From positions 1 to 64,000 of the forward strand of contig NZ_JADKYP010000026.1 in assembly GCF_015354405.1 (NCBI RefSeq): 64,000 nucleotides of DNA, written 5' to 3'. The DNA comes from Nocardia sp. BSTN01. Its GTDB lineage: Bacteria; Actinomycetota; Actinomycetes; Mycobacteriales; Mycobacteriaceae. Under the pieces are notes generated by a model, which searched no databases, was not told where the DNA came from, and was given only the letters and a program-made list of their open reading frames with translations. Positions 28,443 to 63,832 of the stretch are shown here, piece by piece (the first letter of the stretch is position 1; each line of letters opens with the position of its first letter). The position numbers and the translations under genes were made by a program.

Positions 28443-29033
28443 ATGGACCCTGCGGATCGTCCGCCGAGCGAGATAGCGGCGCGGACCGCTTACAGCGCGA
28501 CCAAGCTGCGTACGATCGAGGCCGCGCTGCGGTTGTTCGCCGAGCACGGGATCAGCGGGACTTCGTTGCAGATGATCGCCGATGCACTCGGTGTCACCAA
28601 GGCTGCGATCTACTACCAGTTCCGGACCAAGGACGACATCGTCCTCGCGGTTGCGGAGTCGGAGCTCGCTTGGCTGGACGAGGCGGTGTCGGTAGCCGAG
28701 TCGGAACCCGATGCTGTCCGCGGCCGCCGAGTGCTGCTCGAGCAGGTGATCGCACTGGCGGTGCGGCGACGCCGGTTGGTCGGGCTGCTGCAGACCGATC
28801 CGGTGATGGTTCGGTTTCTCGCGGAGTACAAGCCGTTCCAGCGGGTGATCGAGCGCCTGTTCGCGATGCTGATCGGCGATACCGCCGCCCCGGACATCCG
28901 GGTGAAAGCGGCGATGATGTCGGCGGCCATCGGCGGCGCGGCGATTCATCCGCTGGTTACCGATCTCGATGATGAGGTGCTGTACCAGTATCTTCTCGAT
29001 ATCGCTCATCGACTGTTCCAGCTCCCCGGCTGA
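28443..29033 (+). CDS. TetR-family regulator
   Basis: A 196-residue TetR regulator: an N-terminal HTH at about 15-62 (KLRTIEAALRLFAEHGISGTSLQMIADALGVTKAAIYYQFRTKDDIV) and a helical ligand domain. It lies 62 bp after the ABM gene on the same strand, so it may control the P450-SDR-ABM unit. It is also the TetR gene closest to the palindromic sites at 29162-29206 and a candidate for the protein that binds all three sets of sites. That link is inference. Confidence 0.9.
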   Translation: MDPADRPPSEIAARTAYSATKLRTIEAALRLFAEHGISGTSLQMIADALGVTKAAIYYQFRTKDDIVLAVAESELAWLDEAVSVAESEPDAVRGRRVLLEQVIALAVRRRRLVGLLQTDPVMVRFLAEYKPFQRVIERLFAMLIGDTAAPDIRVKAAMMSAAIGGAAIHPLVTDLDDEVLYQYLLDIAHRLFQLPG

Positions 29034-29582
29034 GATCTCCTCCTGGACAAGCGGTTCGGCTCCGCCGGATGGCTCTCGTCGGCGGCGGCTCGACACATGT
29101 GGACCGGCAACTCTGCCCGCAGGGCTCGATCACGTGCCGACCGCCCGGCCCTTGTGGCGACCTAGTCGATCGGCTATATTCAATCAGGTCCTAGCCGATC
29201 GGCTAGATGATGGTCTCGTAGGCGCGCCGCGGGGTGAGCCTGCCCGGACGAGGGATGCGATGGCAGAGGGCACCGAGGTTGGCATTATGCGCACACGACG
29301 ATTGGTCGCGGGTTGCGTCACGTTGCCAGCCGGCTGCCGTCCGGCGAAGGGAAATTCCCAGTGATCGAATCCCATGGAGCGAGACGCCCGTGCCGGGCGG
29401 CGGCATCAGCGTCGATCGCGCCTGCTGCGCCAGAATCTTCTGCCATGCAACATATTTGACTTATCCGTGCGCGATTCGTCGTGGTTGTGCGCGGAAAGAA
29501 ACCCCCGATCCTTCAGTGTTGTCGCCGACCATGGCTGCCGGTGCCCCGTGATCCGATGCTTCTTCGAGGTGGTGGAGAGCCG
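29034..29582. other. Intergenic region with paired palindromes
   Basis: About 550 bp between the TetR and PucR genes. It contains the operator pair at 29162-29206. The small open frames on either strand have no recognised motif. The ribosome site of the PucR gene (GGAG near 29574) lies at the right end. Confidence 0.5.
29162..29206. promoter_or_regulatory. Palindromic operator pair, CTAGCCGATCGGCTAG type
   Basis: The perfect 16-bp palindrome CTAGCCGATCGGCTAG is at 29191-29206. CTAGTCGATCGGCTAT, two bases off, is at 29162-29177. The centres are 29 bp apart. The same motif appears upstream of the GMC oxidase operon (35162-35201) and between the MFS and esterase genes (37068-37083). Two-fold symmetry and length suit a TetR-type dimer. 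Confidence 0.75.
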
Positions 29583-30635
29583 ATGAGCGCAACAGTTGTC
29601 ACCACTTCCGGCGGTGTCGATCACGCGGTAGTGCGGGCATGCCAGGAGCTGGCGGAGGCGCTGGTGGCCGGGACGCCGGTGCACGACAGAACCGGCCGAC
29701 TCGAAGCGGCCGCGGCGCGGTGGGCGAGAGCTGGAGTCCCGCTGGAGTGGGTCCACGAACAGTTGGGTAAGAGTCTGAACTACCCCAAGCGACCTGGCGC
29801 CGGGGCCCAAGACGTCGAGGAGCGGGAGTTCGCCGTATTCACCGCCCGGCTCACCGCTGTCCTGGCGACCGTGTCGAAGGCGTATCTGACCGAGAAACAC
29901 AGTTGCCTTCCGTCGCGTTCGCGCTTGGTGTCGGCTCTGCTCACCGGAGACGACGGGACCGCATTGGCTCGCGAGTGCGCGGTAGTACTCGCGCCGAGAT
30001 ACGCAGTGATCGCCGTGGCGCTCCCCGGTTATGGCGAGCCGCACGCGTCGGGAACGCGCGTCGCAACGCGGATCGAGATGGAATTGGCGCGCCGCTGCGG
30101 ATCCGCCGGATTGTCTCGCCTGTCCGGTTCCGACGGGACGATTTTGGTACCGGAACCCCTCGAGGAGTCGGTACTGGACCGGCTTCTCGAGGACCTGTCG
30201 GCGGCGGCGCGGGTACCGCTCACGGCGGCGACCGTCTCGGCGGCACGGCCGGAGCTTGCCGACGCCGCCTGCCGCGCACACGACCTACTGGAGATCGCGG
30301 TATTGCTGGGCCAGCCGGGCACACTGCACCGTTTCCGCGATCTTGCCGCGGAGTATCAGCTCACCCGTCCCGGTCCCGCCCGCGACCAGCTCGCCGGCGT
30401 ACTCGATCCGCTCGACGGCGCTCCGCATCTGATGCTCACCTTGCGGCTTCATCTGTGCGGCACCTATGGCCGCCGGGCCATAGCCCGACGCCTCGGCATC
30501 CATGCCAACACCGTCGAGTATCGACTCAAACGTATCGCCAGTCTCACCGGGCTGGACCCCTTCACCGTGCCCGGGCAGTGGAAGCTTCGCTGCGCGCTGA
30601 CAGCTCGCTCACGCCCGGCAATACCATCGGCCTGA
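29583..30635 (+). CDS. PucR/CdaR-family transcriptional regulator
   Basis: A 350-residue regulator. An N-terminal helical domain contains WVHEQLGKSLNYPKR, and a GGDEF-like middle follows. The C-terminal PucR helix-turn-helix reads LTLRLHLCGTYGRRAIARRLGIHANTVEYRLKRIASLTGLDP. Members activate catabolic operons on binding a metabolite. The ATG at 29583 has GGAG upstream; frames opening earlier cross the palindrome region. It is convergent with the COX-like operon ending at 30688, with 52 bp between stops. Confidence 0.85.
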   Translation: MSATVVTTSGGVDHAVVRACQELAEALVAGTPVHDRTGRLEAAAARWARAGVPLEWVHEQLGKSLNYPKRPGAGAQDVEEREFAVFTARLTAVLATVSKAYLTEKHSCLPSRSRLVSALLTGDDGTALARECAVVLAPRYAVIAVALPGYGEPHASGTRVATRIEMELARRCGSAGLSRLSGSDGTILVPEPLEESVLDRLLEDLSAAARVPLTAATVSAARPELADAACRAHDLLEIAVLLGQPGTLHRFRDLAAEYQLTRPGPARDQLAGVLDPLDGAPHLMLTLRLHLCGTYGRRAIARRLGIHANTVEYRLKRIASLTGLDPFTVPGQWKLRCALTARSRPAIPSA

Positions 30636-30687: not shown

Positions 30688-30987
30688 CTATGCCGCAGCC
30701 AGCCAGGTGCCGAGTAGTTGGCTGCCGATCAGACATACGGCGACAATCGCGATCCAAGCATCGGTGAGCCGCCCCAGCAGGACGGGGGCCCGGCGAACGT
30801 CCATGAACTGGCGGGCGATGAGGCGCACTTTGACCAGGGCGATAACGATCGCGGTGACGGTGACCGCAGTACTGGGAAGCACCACATGGTCGCGGTCGAC
30901 GGAGTCGTCGAGGACCAGATAAACCAACGTCAGCACAGTCAGCACCAGCCATGTCGCCGGCAGGCGGAGTTTCGATCCGAGATCCAC
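30688..30987 (-). CDS. Cytochrome-c-oxidase subunit IV-like (prokaryotic COX4/NorF-like) protein
   Basis: A 99-residue, three-helix membrane protein matching the prokaryotic COX4 family: TWLVLTVLTLVYLVLDD, AIVIALVKVRLIARQFMDVRRAPV and WIAIVAVCLIGSQLLGTWL. The VRLIARQFMDVR stretch between helices is the family signature. It starts with GTG at 30987, three bases after the stop of the COX-III-like gene. It is the last gene of the operon. No subunit I is present in the window. Confidence 0.85.
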   Translation of the reverse strand: MDLGSKLRLPATWLVLTVLTLVYLVLDDSVDRDHVVLPSTAVTVTAIVIALVKVRLIARQFMDVRRAPVLLGRLTDAWIAIVAVCLIGSQLLGTWLAAA

Positions 30988-30990
30988 GAG

Positions 30991-31623
30991 TCACCTCACG
31001 ATATAGAGCAGGGCGAAGATGAGCACCCACAACACGTCGACGGTGTGCCAGTACGTGGCGGCCGTTTCCACGATCTTCTGGGAGCGGCGAGCGGGGCTGT
31101 AGAGCTGATACATCACCACCCCCATAGCGACGAACCCGATGAGCAGGTGCACGCAGTGGATCGAGGTCAGGAAGTAGTAGTGGGAGAAGAAATCGGTCGA
31201 GGCGACGGTGTTCCCGGCCTGGATTTGGCGCACCCACTCGAACACCTTCAACGCGAGGAATACCAGCCCCAGTCCGATTGTGGCCGCCGCGCCGGCCATC
31301 GCGGTGGAGTACCGGCCGGCGCGGGCAGCGTGCACACAGCGAGCGACCGACCACGAACTGGTCAGTAGCACAACGGTGTTGAGCACGCCTGTCGTCAGGC
31401 CGAGCTCGGCTTGCGAACGCAGGTACAGCTGCGGATTCTGCGCTCTGCAGAACAGATACACCGAGAAGTAGGCGGTGAAAACCAGCGTTTCGAAGGCCAC
31501 GAACGCCCACATGTCCGGCTGCCCCGGCACGAGCCCGGCATGCGTGCCGTTCTCGCCGGCGGTGGAGTCACCGCCGGCGACCTGCGATGACCGGGAACCG
31601 TTGTCGGTGGATTCGGCGGTCAT
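30991..31623 (-). CDS. Cytochrome-c-oxidase subunit III-like (CtaE/NorE-like) protein
   Basis: A 210-residue, five-helix protein of the heme-copper oxidase subunit III family: PDMWAFVAFETLVFTAYFSVYL opens the fold, and TSIHCVHLLIGFVAMG and ETAATYWHTVDVLWVLIFALLYI close it. The short five-helix form resembles NorE and CyoC rather than seven-helix CtaE. The ATG at 31623 overlaps the upstream stop in ATGA. With its COX4-like neighbour it would form the accessory pair of an oxidase or NO reductase, yet no catalytic subunit is encoded here. Confidence 0.87.
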   Translation of the reverse strand: MTAESTDNGSRSSQVAGGDSTAGENGTHAGLVPGQPDMWAFVAFETLVFTAYFSVYLFCRAQNPQLYLRSQAELGLTTGVLNTVVLLTSSWSVARCVHAARAGRYSTAMAGAAATIGLGLVFLALKVFEWVRQIQAGNTVASTDFFSHYYFLTSIHCVHLLIGFVAMGVVMYQLYSPARRSQKIVETAATYWHTVDVLWVLIFALLYIVR

Positions 31624-32459
31624 GACGTCCTCACCGGATTGGTCGTTGCGGATTTTTCCTGTGCCACCAGGTCGGGCAGCGGCCCGCTGCCGAAGTCCTC
31701 GCGCCGGATCAGAGTGCGGAGCAGGTGGATGAAGGCGCCGGTGTAGATGCCGAAGACGACCATGTTGATCCACCACGCAATCAGGCCGTTCCAGGCGAAT
31801 ACACCGCGATGGAACAGGCAGGCGGGGGCGACGACGACCTCGGTGAGCGCGTTGCACAGATTCAGGTAGGCGAACCACTTCGGAAACACCCGGTTACGGT
31901 CGAGCAGGATCGCCAGCATCCACACCAGCGACCCGATCAGGAATACGCCCATGGTCGCCACGAACGTCAGGAACGCGGTGTCGTACAGGCCGGCCAGCAA
32001 AGCCGGGTCCCGGTCGGGGCGCATCGCCCCGACGGTCAGCACAATGCACAGCAGCAGCATGCCGGGCACCGCGCTCAGCGAATACAACACCAGGTAGGAG
32101 TAGGCGAAGGCGCGGCTGACCGACATTCGAGTCATCGAGTACGCGATCAGCGCGTTGCACGGCGCGGTCATACCGGTGAGCGCGAACATGATCGCGAACC
32201 CGACGAGCACGCCGTTGCGGGTGCCGTTGAACCAGGCCGCTACTCCCACTGCGTCGCGGGCGGGACTCGGCGGCGGCTGCGTGCGGGTCATGACGAAGAA
32301 GACGGCCGCGAACACGTTGTAGAACGCGACCATCGTCCACCACGCAAACCACAACTCGCGCTTGGGATTATGACGGCAGTGCCACACGAAGCGGCCGACC
32401 AGCGACGCGGTGACGGGCACAGACGGTGGTGCCGCTCCCGGCTGGGCCTCGATGCTCAT
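31620..32459 (-). CDS. Multi-helix membrane protein, paralogue of the next gene
   Basis: A 279-residue membrane protein with about seven hydrophobic helices after a soluble N-terminus of some 35 residues. It is a paralogue of the 32456-33223 product: both have RPDRDP (here 147-152), a Phe-Leu-Ile helix after it, an Asp-Arg...Trp-Phe segment and FAWNG (here 221-225), in the same order. I do not recognise the family. It is coupled by ATGA to the gene on each side, so its product is likely made in step with the COX-III-like subunit. Confidence 0.75.
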   Translation of the reverse strand: MSIEAQPGAAPPSVPVTASLVGRFVWHCRHNPKRELWFAWWTMVAFYNVFAAVFFVMTRTQPPPSPARDAVGVAAWFNGTRNGVLVGFAIMFALTGMTAPCNALIAYSMTRMSVSRAFAYSYLVLYSLSAVPGMLLLCIVLTVGAMRPDRDPALLAGLYDTAFLTFVATMGVFLIGSLVWMLAILLDRNRVFPKWFAYLNLCNALTEVVVAPACLFHRGVFAWNGLIAWWINMVVFGIYTGAFIHLLRTLIRREDFGSGPLPDLVAQEKSATTNPVRTS

Positions 32460-33223
32460 ACCGTCGCCTCGTCCCCGGGTACCGCCGAAGCGAGTCCTTC
32501 CGCCGTGGTCTCCGCGGGTGCGGTGTCGTCGCCGCGCCGACGGGAGACGGCGCGGACGAGCACGGCGGTCATGACGGCAATCCAGGCGGTGATCGCGATG
32601 TTCTTGACCCAGAACGACAGCACACCGTTCCACGCGAAGGGTCCGCTGTGGGCCAGCGCGGTGAACGCCGCCGGCACCAATGCTGCCGCGACAACGAGGT
32701 TGAAATGCGCCACCCATCGGCGAAACACCGGACGCGGCTGGCGGTCGGTGTAGATCGCGATCGCCACGAACACGCTCTGCGCGATGAGAAACGGCACTCC
32801 CGCGGTGAACGTCACCCACGCCAAATCGTTGAACATGCGGGTCAGCTCCGGGTCACGGTCGGGCCGGAACGCGGCGATGATCCAGAACAGATTCGCGGTC
32901 AGAAACAGCGTGGGTCCGCCTGCGGCGCAGCCGATTACGCAATAGGAGAAAATCGGCGTGCGGTGCGCCATGCGCCGCATCTGCACCGCGAGCACCATCA
33001 GGATCGGCACCAGGCCCACGCAAAACCAATTGAACAAGATCATGCTGTAGCGGATACGCGGCACGTTTCCAGGGTCACGATAGAACGCCGCCACCTCGTC
33101 GGCCGACATCGCCGGGGACATCGGATGGACGAATCCCGGAAAAAGGAAGAATGCAGATATCCACACGATCGCCACGACCGGCACCGTCCAGACGAGGATC
33201 AGCTCGCCATCTGTTCTTCTCAT
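32456..33223 (-). CDS. Multi-helix membrane protein, paralogue of the next gene
   Basis: A 255-residue membrane protein with about seven helices. It shares RPDRDP (120-125), the following ...GVPFLI helix, PVFRRWVAHFNL and FAWNG (196-200) with the downstream product, so the pair arose by tandem duplication. The extracytoplasmic loop PMSPAMSADEVAAFYRDPGNVPRIRYS is specific to this copy. The ATG at 33223 has GAGGAG 9 nt upstream, deciding against the TTG at 33232. It overlaps the next gene in ATGA. Function unknown. Confidence 0.78.
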   Translation of the reverse strand: MRRTDGELILVWTVPVVAIVWISAFFLFPGFVHPMSPAMSADEVAAFYRDPGNVPRIRYSMILFNWFCVGLVPILMVLAVQMRRMAHRTPIFSYCVIGCAAGGPTLFLTANLFWIIAAFRPDRDPELTRMFNDLAWVTFTAGVPFLIAQSVFVAIAIYTDRQPRPVFRRWVAHFNLVVAAALVPAAFTALAHSGPFAWNGVLSFWVKNIAITAWIAVMTAVLVRAVSRRRGDDTAPAETTAEGLASAVPGDEATV

Positions 33224-33356
33224 GTTTTTCAACTCCTCACGCGAATGCGCACCGAAGTACGCGTCCCGCGAAAGCTTCGACGCCCGGTACGAGATCGGCC
33301 GGTCGTTCTGCTGGATAGCGGGCGATGCAGTCGGCCCGGCATGTCGATGGGCTGGG

Positions 33357-35000
33357 TCAGAAGACGGTTCCGAGGTCTTTGGCGAGGATGTCGTCGAGAC
33401 AGCGCTCGGCGAGGGCGGCGATGGTCATCGACGGGTTGCAGGCACCGGTATTGCCGGGGATCAGGGCACCGTCGACAACGTAGAGCCCGCGCTGGCCGCT
33501 GACCCGGCCGTACGTGTCACACACCGCCCCCATCACCGCGCCCCCGAGAGGATGCCAGGTGGAAGTGTCGGTGACACCGGTGTCGATGACGGCGCCGCCG
33601 GGGTCGGGGCCGACGATGCGGCCGATTGTGGCGCGGATGCGACTGGTGAGATCGGCGCTGTAATCGGGTTTCCAGTGCAGGATCGCGTCGTCCAGCGCGG
33701 GGTCGAACACGAACTCGCCTTTGGCGTCGACCGATCCGAATCCCACCATGGACATGAGGTCGAGGTCGACCGGGAAGGGTGCCGGTCCGATGGCGATCGT
33801 GAACGGCCCGGCCGGGTCGTCCCAGAACTTCACCCCGACACACGCCGGACCGCCCTGCTGCGCACCCCAACTGCCGTGGGGTGCACGCACGAGATATATG
33901 CGGTCGCCGTTGCTGCCCCACCCCTGCCCGGTGGCGTCGGGTAGGTCCCCGATGAGATTCTTGGCTTTGGCCTTGCACAGCAGCCGCGTCGTGCCCGCCG
34001 AGCCGGCCGCCAAGAAGACGGCGTCGGCCATGATCTGCTTACGCTCGACCACCGCGCCGGTGGTGTCGATGCGGTCGGTGTGCAGCAACCACCGCCCGTC
34101 GGCGCGGCGTTCGACGTCACGGACGATGTGCAGGGTCTCCACCGTGACCCGGCCGGTACCCTCCGCGGCCTTGACGTAGGTGACATCGACTGTGCGTTTG
34201 CCGCCGTTGTTCACCCCGTAGGACAGGTCGCTGTTGGTGTAGCTGGGCTTGGCCTGCCCGCGCAGCTCCATGCGCGCGAACTCCCAGTCGATCGGCAGCG
34301 GCACCCGGAAGTGCTCCAGTCCGGCGGCACCGACCATCTCGGCGAACAGCCGGGTCCCCTGATAGGACGGCGAGTTCCACAGATCGTCGGGTAACGGTGC
34401 CGGGCGCAGCACCTGCGCCACCCGGCGATAGTAGATATCGCGCATCGGTGCGTAGTCCACGCCGGGGATGTCGCGAGTGAAGTTGGCCTCTGTCGGCTGC
34501 AGGGTCATGCCGTGATAGTTCAGCGACCCGCCCCCGACCCCGGCCGCGCACATGATGTCCATCCCCTCCCCCCGCACCCGTTCGAGGATTCCCGGGAACT
34601 TCTCGAAGGTCGCGGGCACCCCTGCTGCGGTGGTGTCGGCGAGGAATGTCGACCGCTTGTCCGGGGTCATCACATGCGAGAACGTCTCGGCATTCGGGCC
34701 GGTCCTCCAGCGCAGTCCGCGTTCGAGGACCAGCGTTTCCACCCCCGCGCGCGCCAGCCGCGCCGCGGCGACCCCGCCTCCGAACCCACTGCCGATCACG
34801 ACCACCCGACGGCGATCCTCGGTCACCTGGGCCCGCACCCGCGGGGTAGGCAGCACACTGAACCCCGCTCCGATCGCGGCCGCACCGGCGCCGGCCAGCA
34901 CCGTACGCCGGGATAGGCCTCTACGGCTCGGCCGAAATGCCACGGAGGACAGGCTGGAACTCACGCCCTGTGCGTCGAATCGATTGCCAGTCACCATCAT
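33357..35000 (-). CDS. Tat-exported GMC oxidoreductase (cholesterol-oxidase-like)
   Basis: A 547-residue GMC flavoprotein. The N-terminus has a twin-arginine motif (SRRTVLAGAGAAAIGAG, Arg31-Arg32), then the FAD fold VVVIGSGFGG (67-75). Features shared with class I cholesterol oxidases are the PDKRS segment, the AGVGGGSLNYHGM loop, GVNNGGKRTVDVTY and the C-terminal WHPLGG, GRV and LYVVDGALIPGNTG motifs. It should oxidise a sterol-like or other alcohol outside the membrane. Starts at 35000, 34997 or 34994 follow GAAAGGA. It heads the five-gene operon and lies below a palindrome pair. Confidence 0.87.
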   Translation of the reverse strand: MMVTGNRFDAQGVSSSLSSVAFRPSRRGLSRRTVLAGAGAAAIGAGFSVLPTPRVRAQVTEDRRRVVVIGSGFGGGVAAARLARAGVETLVLERGLRWRTGPNAETFSHVMTPDKRSTFLADTTAAGVPATFEKFPGILERVRGEGMDIMCAAGVGGGSLNYHGMTLQPTEANFTRDIPGVDYAPMRDIYYRRVAQVLRPAPLPDDLWNSPSYQGTRLFAEMVGAAGLEHFRVPLPIDWEFARMELRGQAKPSYTNSDLSYGVNNGGKRTVDVTYVKAAEGTGRVTVETLHIVRDVERRADGRWLLHTDRIDTTGAVVERKQIMADAVFLAAGSAGTTRLLCKAKAKNLIGDLPDATGQGWGSNGDRIYLVRAPHGSWGAQQGGPACVGVKFWDDPAGPFTIAIGPAPFPVDLDLMSMVGFGSVDAKGEFVFDPALDDAILHWKPDYSADLTSRIRATIGRIVGPDPGGAVIDTGVTDTSTWHPLGGAVMGAVCDTYGRVSGQRGLYVVDGALIPGNTGACNPSMTIAALAERCLDDILAKDLGTVF

Positions 35001-35348
35001 TCCTTTCGGGGACACCACCTGGGGCAGCAGGGATGGCGTGCGCACGGAACCACCGTGCCTGGGTGGAAGGGATGAGGGGCCATCCACCCAGGCCGCGGCC
35101 GCCGCAGTGATTCACGGCGTCGTCGAGGTGGTCACGCGACCGGCAGGTCCACGCTGCGAATCTAGCCGATCGACTAGATCGAAGGCTAGCCGAACGGCTA
35201 GAAGAGCGCAATAGGTACGGACGAACGTGCCGTCACGCCGTGGAGTGCTGGAACCCTTGCGAGACAACACTTTCTGCGGCCCTCCGCCCGGCGAAGTCAT
35301 GGCGAGCCATGCCCATCGCACTGCGCAGACGCTGACCACGGCAAGCGA
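35001..35348. other. Promoter region of the GMC oxidase operon
   Basis: About 350 bp between the MFS stop and the oxidase start, with no gene. It holds the palindrome pair at 35162-35201, about 160-200 bp upstream of the oxidase ATG. The AT-rich TAGATC and TAGAAG around the palindromes could contain -10 elements. Confidence 0.6.
35162..35201. promoter_or_regulatory. Palindromic operator pair upstream of the GMC oxidase operon
   Basis: CTAGCCGATCGACTAG (35162-35177) and CTAGCCGAACGGCTAG (35186-35201) each differ by one base from the perfect palindrome at 29191. Their centres are 24 bp apart, so two dimers could bind on nearby faces. The location suits repression of the five-gene operon. Confidence 0.75.
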
Positions 35349-37010
35349 TTACTGTGCCGGGTTATCGGCCGGCGCGGCACAGTGCGAGTCCTGCGAGCTG
35401 TCGGCGCCGCCGGTTGCCGGAGTGCGGCCATGGCGCATGAACACGGCCAGGACCAACGCGATGAGCGTCGTGGCGGTGACGAACCAGAATCCGAGGATGT
35501 AGCCGCGGTCTGTGAACACCTGAGGAATCGTCTGCACCGTAGTGTGGCCCATGACGTCGATGCGCGCGGTGAGCGGTGCGTTGTTGAGCAGCGCGGTGAC
35601 AACCGCCAGGCCGATCGCGGTTCCGATGTTGAGGGTGACACCGAGCATTCCGACACTGATGCCTTGCTGTTCGTCGGGGACGGCCTCGACGATCAGGTTC
35701 GGAAGGGCCGCATAGAAGAATCCGAACCCGATCCCGAAACCCACGCTCAAAATGAGAAACAGCGGCCAACTGTAGGAGGGGATCGCGACCGCGTAGCCGA
35801 CGCCGACGGCAGCCATGACGGCCAGGGCGATGAGGGTGGGAGTCCGCGGGCCGACACGGCGGGCGAGGTATCCGCCGAGCGGTCCGAAGATCAGGCTCAC
35901 CGCGCCGCTCCAAATACCGAGGTGCAGCGCATACTGCAACAGGGTGAACCCACTGCCGTAGCTGTAGCCCGGATCCAGCACCACATGCACGATCGACGTG
36001 GGGATGTTCACGCCCGCGACCTGGTGAGCCTGCTCGACAACACCCTGCGCCACAACATCTTTCAGCTGATCGGCGCTAGGGGTTTGCGTCATGTAGCCGA
36101 GTGCGTACGACTGGACGGCGAGGATGAACACGCCGAACAACGCGATCAGCAGCACCATGCTGACCCGCGGATGCAGGAGCAGCTTCATGTCCATGATCGG
36201 CCTGCGCACTCGCTGCTCGATGATGAAAAACCCGGCCAGCAGGACCAGCCCGGCAACCAGCCATGCCCACGCGCTGGGCCGCCCCCACCCCCAGTCCTGC
36301 CCTTTGTCCAGGTACAGCAGGGTGAACAGCACACCGGCCGCCAACAACAGCGCACCTATCGGGTCGAAGCGATCTTTGACACGCAGTTTCGACTCCGGCA
36401 CCACCAGCATGACGATGGGGGTCAGTACGATCACGAAGAGCGCCAGGAACCAGAACATCGCACGCCAGTCGTAATGGTCGACAAGCAATCCGCCGATCAC
36501 CGGGCCGAGGATCCCGGAGAACCCCAGTCCAGCACCGGTCAGACCCAAGCCGATCGGAACGTACTTGCGCGGCAGTAGATCCCGAATCAAACCGTAGGAG
36601 ATGATCTGGGTGGAGATGGCGAACGCCTGCAGGCCTCGTCCGATCAGAAACCAGGTCCAGTTGTCGGTCACCGCGTCGATCAGGCACCCCGCGACGAAAA
36701 ACAGTCCACTGATGACGAAAAGCCGTTTCTTGCCCCAGATGTCGCTCATCTTGCCCAAAAGCGGTGTGGCTGCCGCTCCGATCAGACCGAGCACGATGAT
36801 GACCCAGCTGAGGTTGGCGCCGACTCCGGGAAACGACGCACTGATTTTCTGCAGCGCCGGCGCGATCATGATGTACTGCAGCGGCGCCATCTCGGTGTAG
36901 AGCACGATCACCGCAAGCACCGTGTAGACGCGTAACCGCGACGCTCCCTCCAGCCGTCCGGTGTCGGGCTCGGCACCCGGGATGCGCGGGGCGATGGAAC
37001 TGGTGGACAT
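35349..37010 (-). CDS. MFS exporter, DHA2 family (14-helix)
   Basis: A 553-residue drug:H+ antiporter-2 type transporter with about 14 helices. It has the A-type motif LLGKMSDIWGKKR after helix 2 and motif C-like GLGFSGILGPVIGGLL in helix 5. An unusually long periplasmic loop (about 310-350, MTQTPSADQLKDVVAQGVVEQAH) lies between helices 9 and 10. It may export a product or take up a substrate of the oxidase system. The ATG at 37010 with GGAG is chosen over a start at 37031. It is divergent from the secreted esterase with one palindrome between. Confidence 0.9.
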   Translation of the reverse strand: MSTSSIAPRIPGAEPDTGRLEGASRLRVYTVLAVIVLYTEMAPLQYIMIAPALQKISASFPGVGANLSWVIIVLGLIGAAATPLLGKMSDIWGKKRLFVISGLFFVAGCLIDAVTDNWTWFLIGRGLQAFAISTQIISYGLIRDLLPRKYVPIGLGLTGAGLGFSGILGPVIGGLLVDHYDWRAMFWFLALFVIVLTPIVMLVVPESKLRVKDRFDPIGALLLAAGVLFTLLYLDKGQDWGWGRPSAWAWLVAGLVLLAGFFIIEQRVRRPIMDMKLLLHPRVSMVLLIALFGVFILAVQSYALGYMTQTPSADQLKDVVAQGVVEQAHQVAGVNIPTSIVHVVLDPGYSYGSGFTLLQYALHLGIWSGAVSLIFGPLGGYLARRVGPRTPTLIALAVMAAVGVGYAVAIPSYSWPLFLILSVGFGIGFGFFYAALPNLIVEAVPDEQQGISVGMLGVTLNIGTAIGLAVVTALLNNAPLTARIDVMGHTTVQTIPQVFTDRGYILGFWFVTATTLIALVLAVFMRHGRTPATGGADSSQDSHCAAPADNPAQ

Positions 37011-37067
37011 ACACACTCCAAGGTCGAACATGTGCGGCAGCCCAGCGTGGCCACCTCTTTACGCGAC

Positions 37068-37083
37068 CTAGCCATTCGGCTAG
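37068..37083. promoter_or_regulatory. Palindromic operator between MFS and esterase genes
   Basis: CTAGCCATTCGGCTAG keeps both CTAGCC and GGCTAG arms of the shared palindrome; only the four centre bases differ. It is 58 bp from the MFS start and 48 bp from the esterase start, so one bound dimer could control both directions. Confidence 0.7.
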
Positions 37084-37130: not shown

Positions 37131-38114
37131 ATGTTCCGCAGTCTGGCCACCCTCTGCGCCGCCGCATCGACGGCGTTCACACTGTGCGGGCTTCCCGTTG
37201 CGCAGGCCGAACCAACGCCCGTACCCGCGGCCGACACGGTGGCGTCGGCTGGATGCGGCCCCGCCGCAGCGCCGCCGGGCACGTCGATCGAAAGGTTCAC
37301 CGGCAGCGGCAAGTCCGGCGTCTACATCCGTGACATCCCGGACTTGCCCGCCGGGCGCCCGGCGCCGCTGGTTGTCGACCTGCACGGCTATCTCGAACCG
37401 GCGATGATCGAACACTCCGGCACGGGCATCGGCCGCTTCGGCCTCGAGCACGGCTTCGCCACCATCACCCCCGAACTCGACCAGCCCGGATTTCCCCGCT
37501 GGGACCCTGGCCCCGGTAGTCCCGACATCGCCTACCTGTCGGAATTGCTCACCCACATCGAGACCACTGCGTGCGTGGATCAGCGCCGGATCTACGTGAC
37601 CGGGCTGTCACTGGGCGCGGCCATGACCTCCTCGTTGGCCTGCCGGCTTGCCGATCGAATCGCTGCCGTCGCCCCGGTCGCCGGGCTACAGAACTACCCA
37701 TGGTGCATCCCGGCGCGGCCGATGCCGACCATCGCGTTCCACGGCACCGAAGATCCGTTCGTCTCCTACCACGGCGGCATGGGCCCCACCGGCGCACTGC
37801 TGCCGACCCTCGACGGGCCGCTGCCGTTCCAGCCGCAGCCCATCCCCGACCAAGCCGCCGCCTGGGCCACCCGCAACGGCTGCGCCGCCACACCGGCCCA
37901 GCAACAGATCGGCAGCGATATCACCGTCACCAGCTACCGCTGCCCGACCGCTGCGGAGGTCCGGCTGTACACCGTCGCCGGCGGCGGGCACACTTGGCCC
38001 GGCAGCACCTCGCCCGTCTATCCCGCCGCGATGGTCGGCGCCACCACAACCACGATCGACGCCAACATGGTCATCTGGGACTTCTTCCAGGCGCACCCCC
38101 TGCCCCGTCGATAA
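37131..38114 (+). CDS. Secreted esterase of the PHB-depolymerase/LpqC-like family
   Basis: A 327-residue exported alpha/beta hydrolase. The signal peptide MFRSLATLCAAASTAFTLCGLPVAQA is likely cleaved after AQA near 26. It has LVVDLHGYLE for the oxyanion loop, GLSLGA with the nucleophile Ser, GTEDPFVSY for the acid and GGGHTWPG for the His. Similar enzymes cleave polyhydroxyalkanoates or feruloyl esters. The ATG has AAGGAAAG upstream. It is divergent from the MFS gene across a shared palindrome, so it may release the alcohol substrate for the GMC oxidase. Confidence 0.87.
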   Translation: MFRSLATLCAAASTAFTLCGLPVAQAEPTPVPAADTVASAGCGPAAAPPGTSIERFTGSGKSGVYIRDIPDLPAGRPAPLVVDLHGYLEPAMIEHSGTGIGRFGLEHGFATITPELDQPGFPRWDPGPGSPDIAYLSELLTHIETTACVDQRRIYVTGLSLGAAMTSSLACRLADRIAAVAPVAGLQNYPWCIPARPMPTIAFHGTEDPFVSYHGGMGPTGALLPTLDGPLPFQPQPIPDQAAAWATRNGCAATPAQQQIGSDITVTSYRCPTAAEVRLYTVAGGGHTWPGSTSPVYPAAMVGATTTTIDANMVIWDFFQAHPLPRR

Positions 38115-47538: not shown

Positions 47539-47757
47539 GCCCAGCACCCCACCACTCCCCCGCGGCGCGAGCCCGCCCAGCAGGTGCCGCGACGCCCACG
47601 GTGGGCATTGTTCAGCCTCCGTTCATGTTTTCACCCGTCAACGATCACCCGGATCGGCTTCGATTCAAGAAATTGGTCGATTGTCCAGGATCTGGGTGGT
47701 TCGCCTGCTTGCGAGCGCCGGCGCCACCTGATTCCACAATGCTGGGAAGAGGTGGGT

Positions 47758-49287
47758 ATGGGTGCGTTCGACGGAATCAACCGGCGAGGGTTTCTCGCCA
47801 AAGCGATGGCCGCCGGCGGGGCAGCGGCAGTCGCCTCATGGGCTGGACCGATCATCGCCAAGGCACACGCCGCTGATCCGGCCGGGACGGGTGGGCTCGG
47901 TGATATCGAGCATTTCGTGTTGCTGATGCAGGAGAACCGGTCCTTCGATCACTACTTCGGAACCTATTCCGGCGTACGAGGTTTCGGCGACCCGTCACCG
48001 GCGTGGCAGCAGTTCGGCTATACACCGGGCGTGGGGCGCGACCCGGACGGGTTCCTGGTGCCCTTCCGGCTCGACACCACCCGCGGCCCCAGTCTCGACG
48101 GTGAGTGCATCAACGACCCTGATCACAGCTGGTCCGGCATGCACGAGGCGTGGAACGGCGGACGTAACGACAAGTGGATGCCGATGTCGATTTCCAAAGT
48201 CGGCGTGGGCAACGGTCCCGCGGCGATGGGTTATTACACCCGCGAGGACATTCCCGTGCACCACGATTTGGCGAATGCCTTCACGCTGTGCGACGGCTAC
48301 CACTGTTCGGTGCTCGGGCCCACCGATCCCAATCGGCTGTATTGGATCTCGGGGACCATCGACCCCGACGGTCACAACGGCGGACCGCACGTGATGACCA
48401 ATCCGCTCATCAGACAGAACACTTTCAGCTGGCGCACCATGCCCGACAACCTGCAAGAGGCCGGAGTCAGTTGGAAGATCTACAACAACAACGACGTCGG
48501 GCCGATCTCCCAGGTGTTCCTCGACGGAATGCTGAGCTCGTTCAAACAGGCTGCGGACCCGAATTCTCCACTGGCCCAACGTGGTAAGACGCCGGTGTTT
48601 CCACACGACTTCGCCGCCGATGTCGCCGCGGGTACCTTGCCCTCGGTGTCGTGGGTGATCCCGCCGCTGATCAACTGCGAACATCCGGCACTACCACCGG
48701 CTTTCGGCGCGGTAGGAATCATGCAGGTCCTCGACATCCTCACCTCCAACCCGGCCGTGTGGGAGAAGACCGCACTGATCGTGTCCTACGACGAGAATGG
48801 CGGCTTCTTCGATCACGTCACACCGCCCACCCCGCCGCCGGGCACGCCCGGCGAGTACCTCACCGTGGATCTGAACCGCGTGTGGGACGCGCGAGGCGTG
48901 GCCGGCCCGATAGGCCTGGGCTACCGGGTGCCGTGCCTGGTCATTTCTCCCTACTCCCGCGGCGGACTGGTGGCCTCGGATACTTTCGACCACACGTCCC
49001 AATTGCGTTTGCTGGAAACGCGTTTCGGTGTCGAGGTGCCCAACCTGACCCGCTGGCGCCGCTCTGTCACCGGCGATATGACCTCGGCATTCGACTTCGC
49101 CTCCGCCCCGGACGCCTCGGCGCCGCCGGTCACCGACCCCCACTCGCGCACCGATGCCGCCGCGGCTCAGTGCGGCCCCAACGTCGTCCTCGGCACAGCC
49201 ACCGTCGGCACCCCGTATCCGGTGCCGTCCAACTCGATGCCCGAGCAGCAGCCCGGCACCCGTCGTCGCCCCAGCGGCGTCCGCTGA
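47758..49287 (+). CDS. Tat-exported phospholipase C (PlcA/B-like phosphoesterase)
   Basis: A 509-residue phosphoesterase close in length to mycobacterial PlcA-C. It has a twin-arginine signal with RRGFLAK at 9-15, then [23 protein letters not shown], the metal-binding core shared with phospholipase C/acid phosphatase Acp[16 protein letters not shown] and the later [12 protein letters not shown] hold metal ligands. It would hydrolyse phosphatidylcholine or sphingomyelin. The ATG at 47758 has GGAAGAGG upstream. Pro-rich residues end the protein. Confidence 0.9.
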
Positions 49288-55601: not shown

Positions 55602-56798
55602 TCAGCCGGTCGCCGACGCTGCGACGCGTTCCGCCGCGTCGGCGCCGAGGATCTCGGACGAATGCTCCCCCCGGTCCGGGGCTCGCCGGATCGCCGGGAG
55701 TGGCGGTGTCACCCGCACCGGCAGGGCAGGGACGGCCGGACCGTCGTTCTCGTCCGCCAGCCACCGCGCCCGTTCCACGAAGTGCGGATCACCGAGCAGA
55801 TCGGCGCCCTCGTTGACGGGTGTCACCGGGATGTTGTGCTCGGTGGCCGCCCGAATCCAGTACGCGGCGGGCCGGCTCGCGAAGATTTCCGCGATCTCGG
55901 CGCGCAGATCGTCGCGGCCGCGCAGCCAGTCCGCCTCTCGATCCGCGGGAAAGGCATCCGATAGGTCCGGCCGGCCCACCAATGCGGCGAAACGCTCCAG
56001 GAATTTGGGTTCCATCGCCTGGAACAGGACGTGCCGCCCGTCGGCGGTGCGGTAGTACTGCACGAGAACCGAATCCTCGAACAGATCGCCCGCCATATCT
56101 CCTCCGGCGGCGTCGTTCGGTGCGGCCTGCTCGTCGTGGCGCCAGCGCACCACATCGGCCGCCCGCGCATAGGTGGCCGCATCCGCCTGGGCGATATCCA
56201 GGTAGGCCGGCCGGCCGGTCGCCCGCGCGTGCAGGACCGCGGAAACCGTGGCCAGCGCGGCGTGCAGCGGAGCCGTGAGGACACCGGCCGGCATCTGGTT
56301 CGGCTGCGGAATGCGAGGGCGACCCCGCGCGTCCGCAGCCGGGGGCAGCGCTCCGGCATACGCGTCGAATGCGGGGCCGTGACTCGGAAACGACCGGTAC
56401 GGTCCGGTGTCGCCGAACCCCGACAGGCAGGTGAAGACGAGCGCGGGGTTCACCCGCAACAAGTCCTCGTAGCCCAGACCGTGCCGGGCCAGATATCCCG
56501 GCCGGCGCCCTTCCACCACCACCTCGGCGTCGGCGACCAGATCGCGGAAGCGGGCCTGTCCGGCCTCGGTGTCCAGTTCGATCACGACGCTGCGCTTGCC
56601 CCGATTCCACAGCTGATGCAGGTCCGAGGTGCGCTGTCCGGCTCGCCGCCCGATCGAGCGCACATAATCGCCGCTGCCGGACTCGACCTTGATCACGTCG
56701 GCGCCCAGTTCCGCCAGATGCCCGCCCAGGGCGCTCGGCGACAGGATCGCCACCTCGATCACCCGGACCCCGGCGAGCAGGCCACCCTCAGCCGACAT
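55602..56798 (-). CDS. CaiB/BaiF (class III) CoA-transferase
   Basis: A 398-residue single-domain CoA-transferase. It has GVRVIEVAILSPSALGGHLAELGADVIKVE at the N-terminus, RGKRSVVIELD, and AYLDIAQADAATYARA, where the Asp of the A-Q-A-D position matches the catalytic Asp of formyl-CoA transferase. It should move CoA between acids in a catabolic pathway. The ATG at 56798 overlaps the double-length CoA-transferase gene by 11 bp. Longer frames to 56972 only shadow that gene. Confidence 0.9.
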   Translation of the reverse strand: MSAEGGLLAGVRVIEVAILSPSALGGHLAELGADVIKVESGSGDYVRSIGRRAGQRTSDLHQLWNRGKRSVVIELDTEAGQARFRDLVADAEVVVEGRRPGYLARHGLGYEDLLRVNPALVFTCLSGFGDTGPYRSFPSHGPAFDAYAGALPPAADARGRPRIPQPNQMPAGVLTAPLHAALATVSAVLHARATGRPAYLDIAQADAATYARAADVVRWRHDEQAAPNDAAGGDMAGDLFEDSVLVQYYRTADGRHVLFQAMEPKFLERFAALVGRPDLSDAFPADREADWLRGRDDLRAEIAEIFASRPAAYWIRAATEHNIPVTPVNEGADLLGDPHFVERARWLADENDGPAVPALPVRVTPPLPAIRRAPDRGEHSSEILGADAAERVAASATG

Positions 56799-59208
56799 GA
56801 CTGACCGCCGCATCCCGTGCGGCGACCGGCCGCGCGCCGGCGCCGATGCCGTCGGGATGCCTGCGCTCCGGCGGCGCCGACCGCGCGATACCCTCCCGTT
56901 CCAGTCGCTCGATCTCGGCATCGGTATAGCCGAGCGAGCGCAACACCGGCTCCGTGTGTTCACCGAGTTCACACGGCAGTCCCTCGACCGGTTCGGCGCC
57001 GGCCATGCGTACGCGCGGCTTCAATCGCCAATACGTTCCGAACGCGGGGTGTTCGGCACTGTCCACCAAACCCGCGTGGACCAGGAAATGCTCGAGCGTA
57101 TGGTCGGCGGCCGACACGATCGGCACCCGCTGCGCCACCGCCGCCGCCTCCCACTCCGCGGCGGTCCGGCTGACGAAGACGTCTTCGAGCAACCATTGCA
57201 GGACCCGATCGTGGGCGGCACGATCGTCTCGATCGGCGAAGCGCTCGTCATCGAGCCATTCCGGTTTGCCCAGCAGGTTCACCAGGCGCGGCCACTCGTC
57301 ATCACCCGAGGCGAGCATGACCCAGCCCTCGGCACATTGATAGAGCCGGTCGAGGGCAGAGAAACCGGTCTGCTCGGTGGTCAGCTCCAGCCGCGCCGGG
57401 CGCCCCTCGTACGACTCCATCCGCGCCGAATGCACCCACCCCGCGCTGACCAGCATGCTGGTCTCGAGGTACTGGCCGATGCCGTGCCGGTCGCGCGCAT
57501 AGAGCCCCAGCGCCAGTGCGACACCGGTCGCCAGACCCGAGCACGGATCGGCGTAGGAGTCGTTCACCGGAGGGTTTCCCTTCCCGGCCTGCGCGATACC
57601 GCCGCCGCAGAGGGCGTTCGGCGTCGAATGGAATGCCGCGCGGTGCGCTTCGGGGCCCTTGCTGCCGTAGGAGGCGCCGTAGAGATAGACGAGGTCCGGC
57701 CGAATCGCGCGCGCCTGCTCGTAACCGAAGCCGAGTTTCTCCGGCACCCCGGGACGGAAGTTGTGGATCAGGGCGTCCGACTGCTCGATCAGCCGATGCA
57801 ATACCTGCTTGCCTTCCGGCGATTTGAGATCGAGGGCGACGGATTCCTTGCCGTTCCCGATGTGGACGAATTCCAGCCCACTGCTGCGGAAGGGGTCACC
57901 GTCCAGCGGCTCCACCTTGATGACCCGGGCACCGAGTTCGGCGAGCAGAGTCGGTCCGAGGGGCGCCGCCAGGAAGGACGCGATCTCGAGAATCGTGTAC
58001 CCCTGCAGTGGCAGGCCGGCCGATTCGCCGGCACCCGCGGACGTGTCGGGCCGGGTCGCGGGCTCCCAGCCGGACCACGGCGCCGCGGAGTCCAGCGCGG
58101 GCGCCGAGGAAACGACCCGCCCCGGCGTCCGATCCGCGGTGACCAGCGGGCCGAGTTGAAGGATGGGCCCCACCTCCGGATCATCGACCGTGACCACGCG
58201 TTCGTTGGCTACCAGCTGGGGATGGCGCAGGAATTCCTCCTCGGTCAGGAACGGATCCGCCCCGATATCCAGGGTGCGGAACATGTCCATCCATTCCTCC
58301 TGGGTCCGCTCCAGCATCCGGTCGCGGACCCGCGCCTCCCACTCCTGCGCGTCCTCGAGACTCTGGACGCCGAGAGGGAGCCCGGCCCAGCGCGGCTGCT
58401 CCAGTTCATCCCCGAGCCCGATCGCATTCATCCAGTTCCGGTACAGGCGCGGTTGGCGGCAGCACATCTGGATATGGCGACCGTCGGCGGTTTCGACCGT
58501 CAGGAAGCACAGCCGGATACCGCGCAGCAGCAGGACCGAGTCGGCGCCGCGGGCCGCCACCGGAACCACCTCCTCACCACGGCGCTCGAAGGCCAGGCGC
58601 ATGGTCGCCGCTGATATGCCGTCCAGCAGACTGGTGGACACCGACCGGCCTCGTCCGGTCCGCTCCCGCTGCAACAACGCCGCCACGATGGCCTGCACGG
58701 CCAGCATGGCCGCGCCGTAGGTGCTCGCGGGCGAGGCCAGATACAGCGGCCGGTCGAGGTCGCCGTGGGCTCCGGAGAGCAGATCGTTGCCCATCAGCCG
58801 GCCGACCTTCGCGGTCACCATCTGTTCGCTGCGGCCGAAGTGTTCCAATTCGGCGGCTTCGCCGAACCCGGTGATCCCGCAGTGGACCAGGCGCGGATTG
58901 CGTGCGGTCGTCAACTCGGGAGTCAGGCCGTATCCGGTGGCCTCGGGCCCCAGCGATTCGACCAGAACATCGGCATCGGCCACCAGAGCGTGCAGCTCGG
59001 CACGTCCCCCCTCCGTGGTGAGATCCAGGACGAGGCTGCGCTTACCCCGGTTCCAGAAGCGAAAGCCCTGCTGCCCGCGCGCGCTGTCGCCTCCTGGGGG
59101 CTCGACCTTGACCACGTCCGCCCCGAAGTCGGCGAGGACCGCGGCGGTTACGGACAACATCCCCTCGGTCAGGTCCACGACGCGGAGACCCTCGAACAGG
59201 CTGACCAT
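56788..59208 (-). CDS. Double-length CaiB/BaiF CoA-transferase (tandem fusion)
   Basis: An 806-residue protein made of two CaiB/BaiF domains: about 1-385 (MVSLFEGLRVVDLTEGML) and about 405-790 (GYTILEIASFLAAPLGPTLLAELGARVIKVE). In the first domain the catalytic-Asp position is kept (TSLLDGIS, Asp196); in the second the same place reads TSMLVSAG, with Val. Class III CoA-transferases usually form interlocked homodimers, so the fusion may be a pseudo-heterodimer with one active site. It lies upstream of, and overlaps, the single-domain gene. The ATG at 59208 starts directly on the fold. Confidence 0.87.
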   Translation of the reverse strand: MVSLFEGLRVVDLTEGMLSVTAAVLADFGADVVKVEPPGGDSARGQQGFRFWNRGKRSLVLDLTTEGGRAELHALVADADVLVESLGPEATGYGLTPELTTARNPRLVHCGITGFGEAAELEHFGRSEQMVTAKVGRLMGNDLLSGAHGDLDRPLYLASPASTYGAAMLAVQAIVAALLQRERTGRGRSVSTSLLDGISAATMRLAFERRGEEVVPVAARGADSVLLLRGIRLCFLTVETADGRHIQMCCRQPRLYRNWMNAIGLGDELEQPRWAGLPLGVQSLEDAQEWEARVRDRMLERTQEEWMDMFRTLDIGADPFLTEEEFLRHPQLVANERVVTVDDPEVGPILQLGPLVTADRTPGRVVSSAPALDSAAPWSGWEPATRPDTSAGAGESAGLPLQGYTILEIASFLAAPLGPTLLAELGARVIKVEPLDGDPFRSSGLEFVHIGNGKESVALDLKSPEGKQVLHRLIEQSDALIHNFRPGVPEKLGFGYEQARAIRPDLVYLYGASYGSKGPEAHRAAFHSTPNALCGGGIAQAGKGNPPVNDSYADPCSGLATGVALALGLYARDRHGIGQYLETSMLVSAGWVHSARMESYEGRPARLELTTEQTGFSALDRLYQCAEGWVMLASGDDEWPRLVNLLGKPEWLDDERFADRDDRAAHDRVLQWLLEDVFVSRTAAEWEAAAVAQRVPIVSAADHTLEHFLVHAGLVDSAEHPAFGTYWRLKPRVRMAGAEPVEGLPCELGEHTEPVLRSLGYTDAEIERLEREGIARSAPPERRHPDGIGAGARPVAARDAAVSHVG

Positions 59209-63760: not shown

Positions 63761-63832
63761 GCTCGTCTCCTCTCCGGCGCGTCGCGCCAGATCTTCGCCG
63801 GCGCATCGTGCCGGCACCTCACTGCGCGAAGC

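What the first reader, a model, noticed from the sequence alone, without database searches (positions are those of the whole stretch)
30688..35000. Five-gene oxidase operon with COX-III and COX-IV-like subunits but no catalytic subunit
An exported cholesterol-oxidase-like flavoprotein is followed by two paralogous seven-helix proteins, a NorE/CyoC-like subunit and a COX4-like subunit, the last four coupled by ATGA overlaps or a 3-bp gap. Subunit III and IV families normally accompany a heme-copper subunit I, which is absent. The two paralogues may take its place, making an undescribed membrane partner for an extracytoplasmic alcohol oxidase (inference).
Basis: partly seen in the sequence, partly recalled or inferred. 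Interest (0 to 1): 0.78.

Follow-up and report, generated by a model that had tools for sequence, protein, structure and literature searches.

The report
NorE/NorF-like membrane cassette lacking catalytic subunit
This bacterium has a switchable set of four membrane proteins, two resembling helper parts of respiratory oxidases and two from an unnamed family, that recurs in other bacteria, often beside genes for breaking down fats, steroids or aromatic compounds and without the usual oxidase core gene, so it may be an undescribed membrane complex.

Summary
Genes A-E lie where stated; B/C and C/D overlap by ATGA and D/E are 3 bp apart. B and C are paralogues (30% identity) without a Pfam or NCBIfam family; AlphaFold gives B six transmembrane helices, not seven. 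D is COX3/NorE-type and E COX4-type. No subunit I lies in the window.

The conserved unit is B-C-D-E, not A-E. In the 80 best relatives B, C and D occur in 80, E in 79, a homologous TetR gene in 77, GMC gene A in 0. A one-copy form (6TM-COX3-COX4) occurs in other Actinomycetota and in Proteobacteria. B/C share no conserved histidine, so they are unlikely to replace a heme subunit.

A palindromic operator precedes B in 78 of 80 relatives. In the window it precedes A, so A was recruited into this regulon. In a congener it also precedes a divergent Mce import operon.

Best reading: an inducible, cofactor-free NorE/NorF-like membrane module serving catabolism of lipophilic compounds. The function is inferred. 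New variant of a known kind.

The parts
33357..35000 (-). A: exported (Tat-like signal) class I cholesterol-oxidase-like GMC flavoprotein, 547 aa; lineage-specific addition to the operon
   Evidence: PF05199 51 bits; 287 bits to cholesterol oxidases such as 1b4v; His447 and Asn485 equivalents kept, Glu361 equivalent is Ala403; absent from the 80 best relatives
32456..33223 (-). B: first six-helix membrane paralogue (unnamed family), 255 aa
   Evidence: alignments A1-A3; AF2 model pLDDT 81.8, pTM 0.77
31620..32459 (-). C: second membrane paralogue of the same family, 279 aa
   Evidence: 30% identity to B, E 1e-21; 80 of 80 best relatives
30991..31623 (-). D: NorE/CyoC-type subunit-III-like membrane protein, 210 aa
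   Evidence: PF00510 64.1 bits; alignment A4; tree
30688..30987 (-). E: COX4_pro-type protein in the NorF position, 99 aa
   Evidence: PF03626 39.9 bits; alignment A5
35163..35200 (.). two operator palindromes (TAGCCGATCGGCTA type, 1 mismatch each) upstream of A
   Evidence: 5 matches in the window against 0.10 expected; same palindrome upstream of B in 78 of 80 relatives
28443..29033 (+). TetR-family regulator, homologue of the TetR beside the cassette in relatives; probable repressor of the operon (binding not shown)
   Evidence: PF00440 62 bits; homologue in 77 of 80 relatives at 46-57% identity
29163..29205 (.). two further operator palindromes between the TetR and PucR-like genes
   Evidence: 1 and 0 mismatches
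29586..30635 (+). PucR-type helix-turn-helix regulator downstream of that operator pair; possible regulon member
   Evidence: PF13556 44 bits; operator
37069..37082 (.). fifth operator palindrome (2 mismatches), between the MFS gene and the divergent gene 37131-38114
35349..37031 (-). MFS transporter; possible regulon member
   Evidence: PF07690 150 bits; operator 38 bp upstream of its first ATG

Best explanation
B-C-D-E is an inducible membrane module. Two copies of an unnamed six-helix protein stand with a NorE-like and a NorF/COX4-like protein. Shown: the gene order is conserved; a one-copy form (6TM-COX3-COX4) exists in other Actinomycetota and in Proteobacteria; no heme-copper subunit I is encoded with it in the loci searched, bar one COX1 about 8 kb away; a palindromic operator is tied to it; this genome has a cholesterol-oxidase-like gene, and a congener an Mce import operon, behind the same palindrome. 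Inferred: the four proteins form one complex without a redox centre of its own. The NorE/NorF-like pair acts as a lipid-embedded scaffold, and the six-helix proteins, whose conserved motifs are modelled to face outward, bind or hand over a lipophilic substrate (sterol, terpenoid, fatty or aromatic compound) to the catabolic oxidases and importers encoded nearby. The TetR protein releases the operon when the compound or its metabolite is present.
For: Unit: in the 80 best relatives B, C and D in 80, E in 79, TetR in 77. In a second set of 66 loci, five of which belong to the 80 or overlap members of it, and two of which are one locus, a six-helix gene and a COX3-like gene stand on one strand within 0.9 kb in 55. 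No subunit I: in 125 loci and the window a COX1 search hit only the own COX1 locus, fetched as such, and one COX1 in L085; NorB only in the nor operon fetched as such; none in the 23 short loci L156-L178. Single COX1 in G085. No redox ligands in the 6TM. Operator. Mce link in the congener L062. In 10 of 12 annotated plasmid neighbourhoods acyl-CoA, ring-hydroxylase, P450 or Mce genes lie nearby (the others are).
Against: No protein contact was tested. The substrate-handling role rests on neighbourhood and regulation; catabolic genes are abundant in these genomes and no genome-wide null was computed. Of 66 loci, 8 show a six-helix gene without a COX3-like gene in the stretch (some stretches are short) and 3 have it on the other strand, so the complex may not be obligatory. 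D keeps residues typical of true subunit III, which could mean that it still docks on a heme-copper subunit I; all genomes examined with the six-helix gene have a COX1 somewhere (21 of 21, 10 of 10). D proteins of cassettes do not form one clade in the tree.
Confidence: 0.4

Rival explanations
1. D and E are alternative subunits III/IV that swap into the housekeeping aa3 oxidase (or another heme-copper enzyme encoded elsewhere), and B/C are extra subunits that tune it during growth on particular substrates.
For: D keeps positions shared with the own CtaE (F49, F53, T83, S90, F122, E129, H156, H159, G163, W192, H193, D196). Every examined genome with the six-helix gene has at least one COX1 (21 of 21, 10 of 10). 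COX1 and the CtaE-type COX3 lie on different contigs in the own genome.
Against: D is nearer to a NorE (37% identity) than to the own CtaE (29%). Two COX3/COX4 cassettes against one COX1 in G244 and four against two COX1 fragments in G221, though these genomes may be incomplete. The annotated cassettes are not beside respiratory genes. The distance of D from aa3 rows in the tree is not safe because of long branches.
Confidence: 0.24
2. One reading: B/C/D/E are a dedicated electron-accepting membrane partner (heme or quinone) of the exported GMC oxidase.
For: A stands behind the cassette's operator in this genome and directly precedes B. A carries a Tat-like signal, and the conserved motifs of B lie in loops modelled as extracytoplasmic.
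Against: A-type GMC genes are absent from the 80 best relatives and from 125 loci at E 1e-5 (a more distant GMC, mftG, is annotated in L073). 0 of 29 nearest A homologues have the cassette or the operator within about 1.5 kb. No conserved heme ligand in B/C. Class I cholesterol oxidases pass electrons to O2 directly (established knowledge). A quinone site is not excluded.
Confidence: 0.14
3. The six-helix proteins are themselves a membrane enzyme or exporter acting on the lipophilic compound, and D/E only stabilise them.
For: A cluster of fixed residues in loops modelled as outward (P34, P37, R120, R123, W198, G200) looks like a functional site. The six-helix gene can stand alone, e.g. L073 beside mycofactocin genes.
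Against: No significant fold or sequence match to any solved protein. A COX3-like gene accompanies it on the same strand in 55 of 66 loci.
Confidence: 0.17
4. Chance neighbourhood or assembly artefact.
For: The assembly has 206 contigs.
Against: Conserved order in the close clade and in other phyla and a conserved operator.
Confidence: 0.01

Closest known systems
NorE/NorF of nitric oxide reductase operons (norCBQDEF)
   Same: D and E are COX3- and COX4-type proteins in the same order; plasmid hits of D include NorE genes next to NorD (VWA) genes. [quoted passage not shown]
   Different: No NorB homologue in the cassette loci searched. The first gene is of the six-helix family. A TetR gene and operator go with the close clade. 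Most cassette D proteins group apart from the NorE proteins of Thioclava, Roseibium and Aliiroseovarius.
CtaE/CoxC and prokaryotic subunit IV of aa3-type oxidases
   Same: Fold family and fixed residues of subunit III.
   Different: 27-29% identity to the own CtaE; below the NCBIfam cut-offs for CtaE, CyoC and QoxC; no subunit I gene with the module.
Class I cholesterol oxidase (e.g. PDB 1b4v)
   Same: A aligns over residues 66-543, with His447 and Asn485 equivalents kept (residue numbering and roles recalled).
   Different: The Glu361 equivalent is Ala in A; none of the 30 aligned sequences (A and 29 homologues) has Glu in the seven residues around it, so the steroid isomerase step is not expected.
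MftG-mycofactocin respiration link
   Same: A GMC flavoprotein reported to pass electrons to membrane components whose identity is open (PMC11778925, passages read).
   Different: A is not MftG (44.8 bits against a cut-off of 400), and 0 of 10 genomes of the Novosphingobium-MAG family with the six-helix gene have MftC over its cut-off.

Membership tests
Heme-copper oxidase complex | catalytic subunit I (COX1/NorB) encoded with the module | tested here: not met
   none in the window; among 125 loci one cassette locus (L085) has a COX1, about 8 kb beyond E; none in L156-L178
Heme-copper oxidase complex | histidine ligands for heme/CuB in the proposed replacement subunit | tested here: not met
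   no His column reaches 60% across B and C; above 80% only His87 in B (55 rows) and none in C (37 rows)
Heme-copper subunit III superfamily (PF00510) | COX3 profile over its gathering score | tested here: met
   D 64.1 bits, cut-off 23.8
Prokaryotic COX4 (PF03626) | profile over its gathering score | tested here: met
   E 39.9 bits, cut-off 28.9
NorE/NorF accessory pair | located with norB | tested here: not met
   no NorB homologue in the window or the cassette loci searched
NorE/NorF accessory pair | D groups inside the NorE proteins of nor operons | tested here: inconclusive
   seven rows (three NorE, four orphan pairs) are split off at 98/98, but the Azoarcus cassette groups with two NorE-type rows (99/97); cassette rows need 3 changes and are one clade in 0% of bootstrap trees; many open forks
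aa3-type CtaE (NF050119) | score over the curated cut-off | tested here: not met
   89.2 bits against 190
Class I cholesterol oxidase | catalytic His447, Asn485 and Glu361 equivalents | tested here: not met
   His and Asn present, Glu replaced by Ala; overall homology met
Class I cholesterol oxidase | oxidase activity on cholesterol | not testable with these tools
   needs an assay
Mycofactocin system | six-helix gene occurs only with mycofactocin biosynthesis | tested here: not met
   21 of 21 genomes with a C homologue in the own family have MftC over cut-off against 94 of 130 others, but 0 of 10 genomes of the Novosphingobium-MAG family

The most novel reading that the evidence does not exclude
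A class of membrane complex in which the subunit III/IV fold pair works outside heme-copper enzymes, built around an unnamed six-helix family that takes subunit I's place as partner, and used in lipophile catabolism in several phyla. It would give a first handle on what NorE/NorF-type proteins do in general.
Probability: 0.38. Interest if true: 0.8.

Novelty: new variant of a known kind. Interest (0 to 1): 0.57.

Why it matters
Subunit III and its NorE relatives are known to me only as helpers of heme-copper enzymes, and the function of NorE/NorF is stated in print to be not well defined (PMC8139620, passage). A conserved cassette, in several copies in some genomes, that keeps NorE/NorF-like proteins without a catalytic subunit beside it, and adds a six-helix family without a Pfam or NCBIfam model, makes that question testable outside denitrification. 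It also adds a regulated membrane component to catabolic loci, where it is annotated as a hypothetical protein followed by cytochrome c oxidase subunits.

Tried and rejected
Mycofactocin as the electron carrier of the module: suggested by L073, where the six-helix gene lies two genes after mftABCDEF, and by 21 of 21 genomes with a C homologue having MftC (one of them, G044, has only a weak match, and no cassette gene was found at it). Fisher p is 0.004 against 94 of 130, not corrected for kinship. Rejected as a general requirement because 0 of 10 genomes of the Novosphingobium-MAG family have MftC over the cut-off.

A distant subunit I partner: COX1 was counted in the own family and in ten genomes of the other. 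In the own genome one full COX1 is on C122 and another gene is split between contig ends C131 and C7, next to a SerB-like reading frame, read as the housekeeping ctaD from recall; a role of either with the cassette was not tested.

Fold of B: no match below E 0.18 in PDB (TM-scores up to 0.41 in the listed rows) or below E 0.2 among viral models (up to 0.47). PDB profile search: none. Viral contigs: none. AveC spirocyclase: the name was recalled and searched in print, not tested by sequence. Papers: searches listed none that seemed to describe the cassette; passages of three papers were read, otherwise only listings.

Mce neighbourhood: MlaE genes within 20 kb of cassettes were read off by eye in G022, G092, G045, G069, G124 and G136 (the list was cut off), plus annotated Mce genes in L071 and L075. 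No null was computed, so outside L062 it is only suggestive.

The tree labels L222 as an orphan pair; a later profile scan found six-helix matches beside it in two reading frames, so that label is wrong, and the L222 row is not used in the argument. L218, labelled norE, stands with norQ- and norD-like genes but no norB in the stretch shown.

Full report
WHAT IS THERE. The five genes are real and placed as described: A 35000-33357, B 33223-32456, C 32459-31620, D 31623-30991, E 30987-30688, all on the minus strand. B/C and C/D overlap by ATGA, D and E are 3 bp apart, A and B are 133 bp apart. A is a GMC flavoprotein with 287 bits to class I cholesterol oxidases and a Tat-like N-terminus (motif recalled; sequence). 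B and C are paralogues (30% identity over 227 aa) with no Pfam or NCBIfam family (B has one Pfam match at E 0.14, far under its cut-off). D scores 64.1 bits with COX3 and E 39.9 bits with COX4_pro, both over the gathering scores.

THE CONSERVED UNIT IS FOUR GENES, NOT FIVE. In these B, C and D are present in 80 of 80; E in 78 by blastp and in L148 by profile, while the contig of L150 ends before E; a TetR homologous to the window's TetR in 77, a P450 homologue in 59, the GMC gene A in 0 at E 1e-8. In the own family 21 of 151 genomes have a C homologue, 2 of the 10 of the own genus. The fetched regions show the same order. In a second set of 66 loci, which includes one-copy forms (L076 and L089 belong to the 80, L049, L051 and L052 overlap three of them, and L156 and L171 are one locus), a six-helix gene and a COX3-like gene stand on one strand within 0.9 kb in 55; in 8 no COX3-like gene is in the stretch and in 3 it lies on the other strand. 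Named plasmid records show the one-copy form (hypothetical protein, cytochrome c oxidase subunit 3, in most also subunit IV) in Novosphingobium, Diaphorobacter, Pseudonocardia, Rhodococcus and Mycobacterium; in Sphingobium the parts are 2.5 kb apart on opposite strands; Streptomyces has a full set and a six-helix gene without COX3 in the stretch. Ten of 199 genomes of the family of a Novosphingobium MAG have the six-helix gene.

NO LOCAL SUBUNIT I. A blastp of the own COX1 against 125 loci (2.30 Mb) and the window found only the own COX1 locus and one COX1 in L085, about 8 kb beyond its E gene; NorB found only the nor operon fetched as a comparison. The 23 short loci L156-L178 have neither. 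All 21 and 10 genomes counted have a COX1 somewhere, but G085 (one contig, complete) has a single one, so no dedicated copy exists there. G244 shows two COX3/COX4 cassettes against one COX1 and G221 four against two COX1 fragments, but how complete these genomes are was not told. Sharing the housekeeping subunit I is not excluded anywhere.

B AND C ARE NOT A DISGUISED HEME SUBUNIT. Across B and C no histidine column reaches 60%. In B one (His87, a cytoplasmic loop by the model) is fixed in 55 rows; in C (37 rows) none exceeds 80%. Residues fixed or nearly so in alignments of B and C are P34, P37, R120, R123, W170, G194, A197, W198, G200 and W205; with wider one-copy forms only W170, G194, P195 and G200 stay invariant. 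Eight of those ten lie in three loops that face outward if the N-terminus is inside, which loop charges favour moderately. Foldseek against PDB gave nothing below E 0.18, and a profile search of PDB sequences gave nothing.

D IS NORE-LIKE. Among plasmid hits of D are NorE genes in nor operons, the subunit III of a coxB-ctaD operon and COX3-COX4 pairs without a six-helix gene in the stretch (L210, L215, L216, L217). In a tree of 42 sequences three NorE proteins and those four pairs are split off from the cassettes at 98/98; one cassette, Azoarcus, joins two NorE-type rows (99/97). Cassette D proteins need 3 changes and are one clade in 0% of the bootstrap trees; many forks are unresolved and the bootstrap had not settled. 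Residues fixed between the cassettes and the own CtaE are kept.

REGULATION. The palindrome TAGCCGATCGGCTA (up to two mismatches) lies within 400 bp upstream of the B match in 78 of 80 relatives: 121 sites there against 5 elsewhere in 1.54 Mb. The window has 5 sites against 0.10 expected: two upstream of A, none between A and B, two between the TetR gene and the PucR-like gene, one upstream of the MFS gene. In the own-family regions the loci with a TetR of the window's type (L048, L049, L051, L052, L055, L062) carry a site at the cassette, while the eight with the other TetR type (L054, L056-L060, L063, L064) carry none there. None of 29 loci of the nearest A homologues has it. So A probably entered the operon between promoter and B in this lineage. 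In the only other genome of the own genus in the sample that has the cassette (L062), one site precedes B and another precedes a divergent MlaE/Mce operon. Binding by TetR is inferred, not shown.

THE OXIDASE. A keeps the His447 and Asn485 equivalents (30 of 30 aligned sequences) and has Ala403 at the Glu361 position; no Glu occurs within three residues of it in any of the 30. From established knowledge of class I cholesterol oxidases it may oxidise an alcohol with O2 but should not isomerise a steroid. GMC matches are common (141 of 151 genomes at E 0.001), and 0 of 29 nearest A homologues have cassette genes within about 1.5 kb.

HOW IT MOST LIKELY WORKS. Shown: an operator-linked membrane gene cassette found in several phyla. 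Inferred: B and C pair, D and E attach as NorE/NorF-like scaffold, and the complex binds or passes a lipophilic substrate at the outer face of the membrane to oxidases and importers that differ by lineage (GMC here, Mce in the congener, P450 in many mycobacteria, ring hydroxylases and acyl-CoA enzymes in others). The first two moved by 0.02 on recheck, because the genomes with more cassettes than COX1 may be incomplete.

NOVELTY. The searches listed no paper that seemed to describe the cassette; the library holds only open-licence papers. The parts D and E are of known kind; the six-helix family and its combination with them appear undescribed. I rate it a new variant of a known kind (NorE/NorF-type accessory modules).

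Noticed in passing
window 29163-29205, 37069-37082: The cassette's operator palindrome also lies between the TetR and PucR-like genes and upstream of an MFS gene, so the local regulon may include both.
   Followed up: partly
window 56788-59208 and 61463-63817: Two CaiB/BaiF-like proteins of 806 and 784 aa look like head-to-tail fusions of two CoA-transferase domains (by eye), in a region with further CoA-transferase and SDR-like frames and an amidohydrolase.
   Followed up: no
L085 20188-20706: A COX1 homologue (72% over 168 aa) lies about 8 kb beyond the cassette in Mycobacterium sp. DL99, the only such case seen.
   Followed up: no
L210, L215, L216, L217: COX3-COX4 pairs with no six-helix gene in the stretch, in Azospirillum, Skermanella and Chelatococcus plasmids: a further NorE/NorF-like arrangement without a local subunit I by annotation.
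   Followed up: partly
L073 8896-9642: A six-helix gene without COX3 or COX4 in the stretch lies two genes after a full mycofactocin locus in a Streptomyces plasmid.
   Followed up: partly
59 of 80 loci, e.g. L083, L123, L133: A cytochrome P450 gene lies downstream of the cassette, in the opposite orientation, in many mycobacteria.
   Followed up: partly
window 47584-49287: A Tat-like exported phosphoesterase resembling bacterial phospholipase C (by eye).
   Followed up: no
own genome C131:3-182 and C7:10380-10529: A second COX1 gene is split over two contig ends, one beside a SerB-like frame; probably the housekeeping ctaD (identity recalled).
   Followed up: partly
L222 7000-7769: Six-helix matches beside a COX3-COX4 pair in a Rhodococcus koreensis plasmid fall in two reading frames, so the gene may be broken there.
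   Followed up: no
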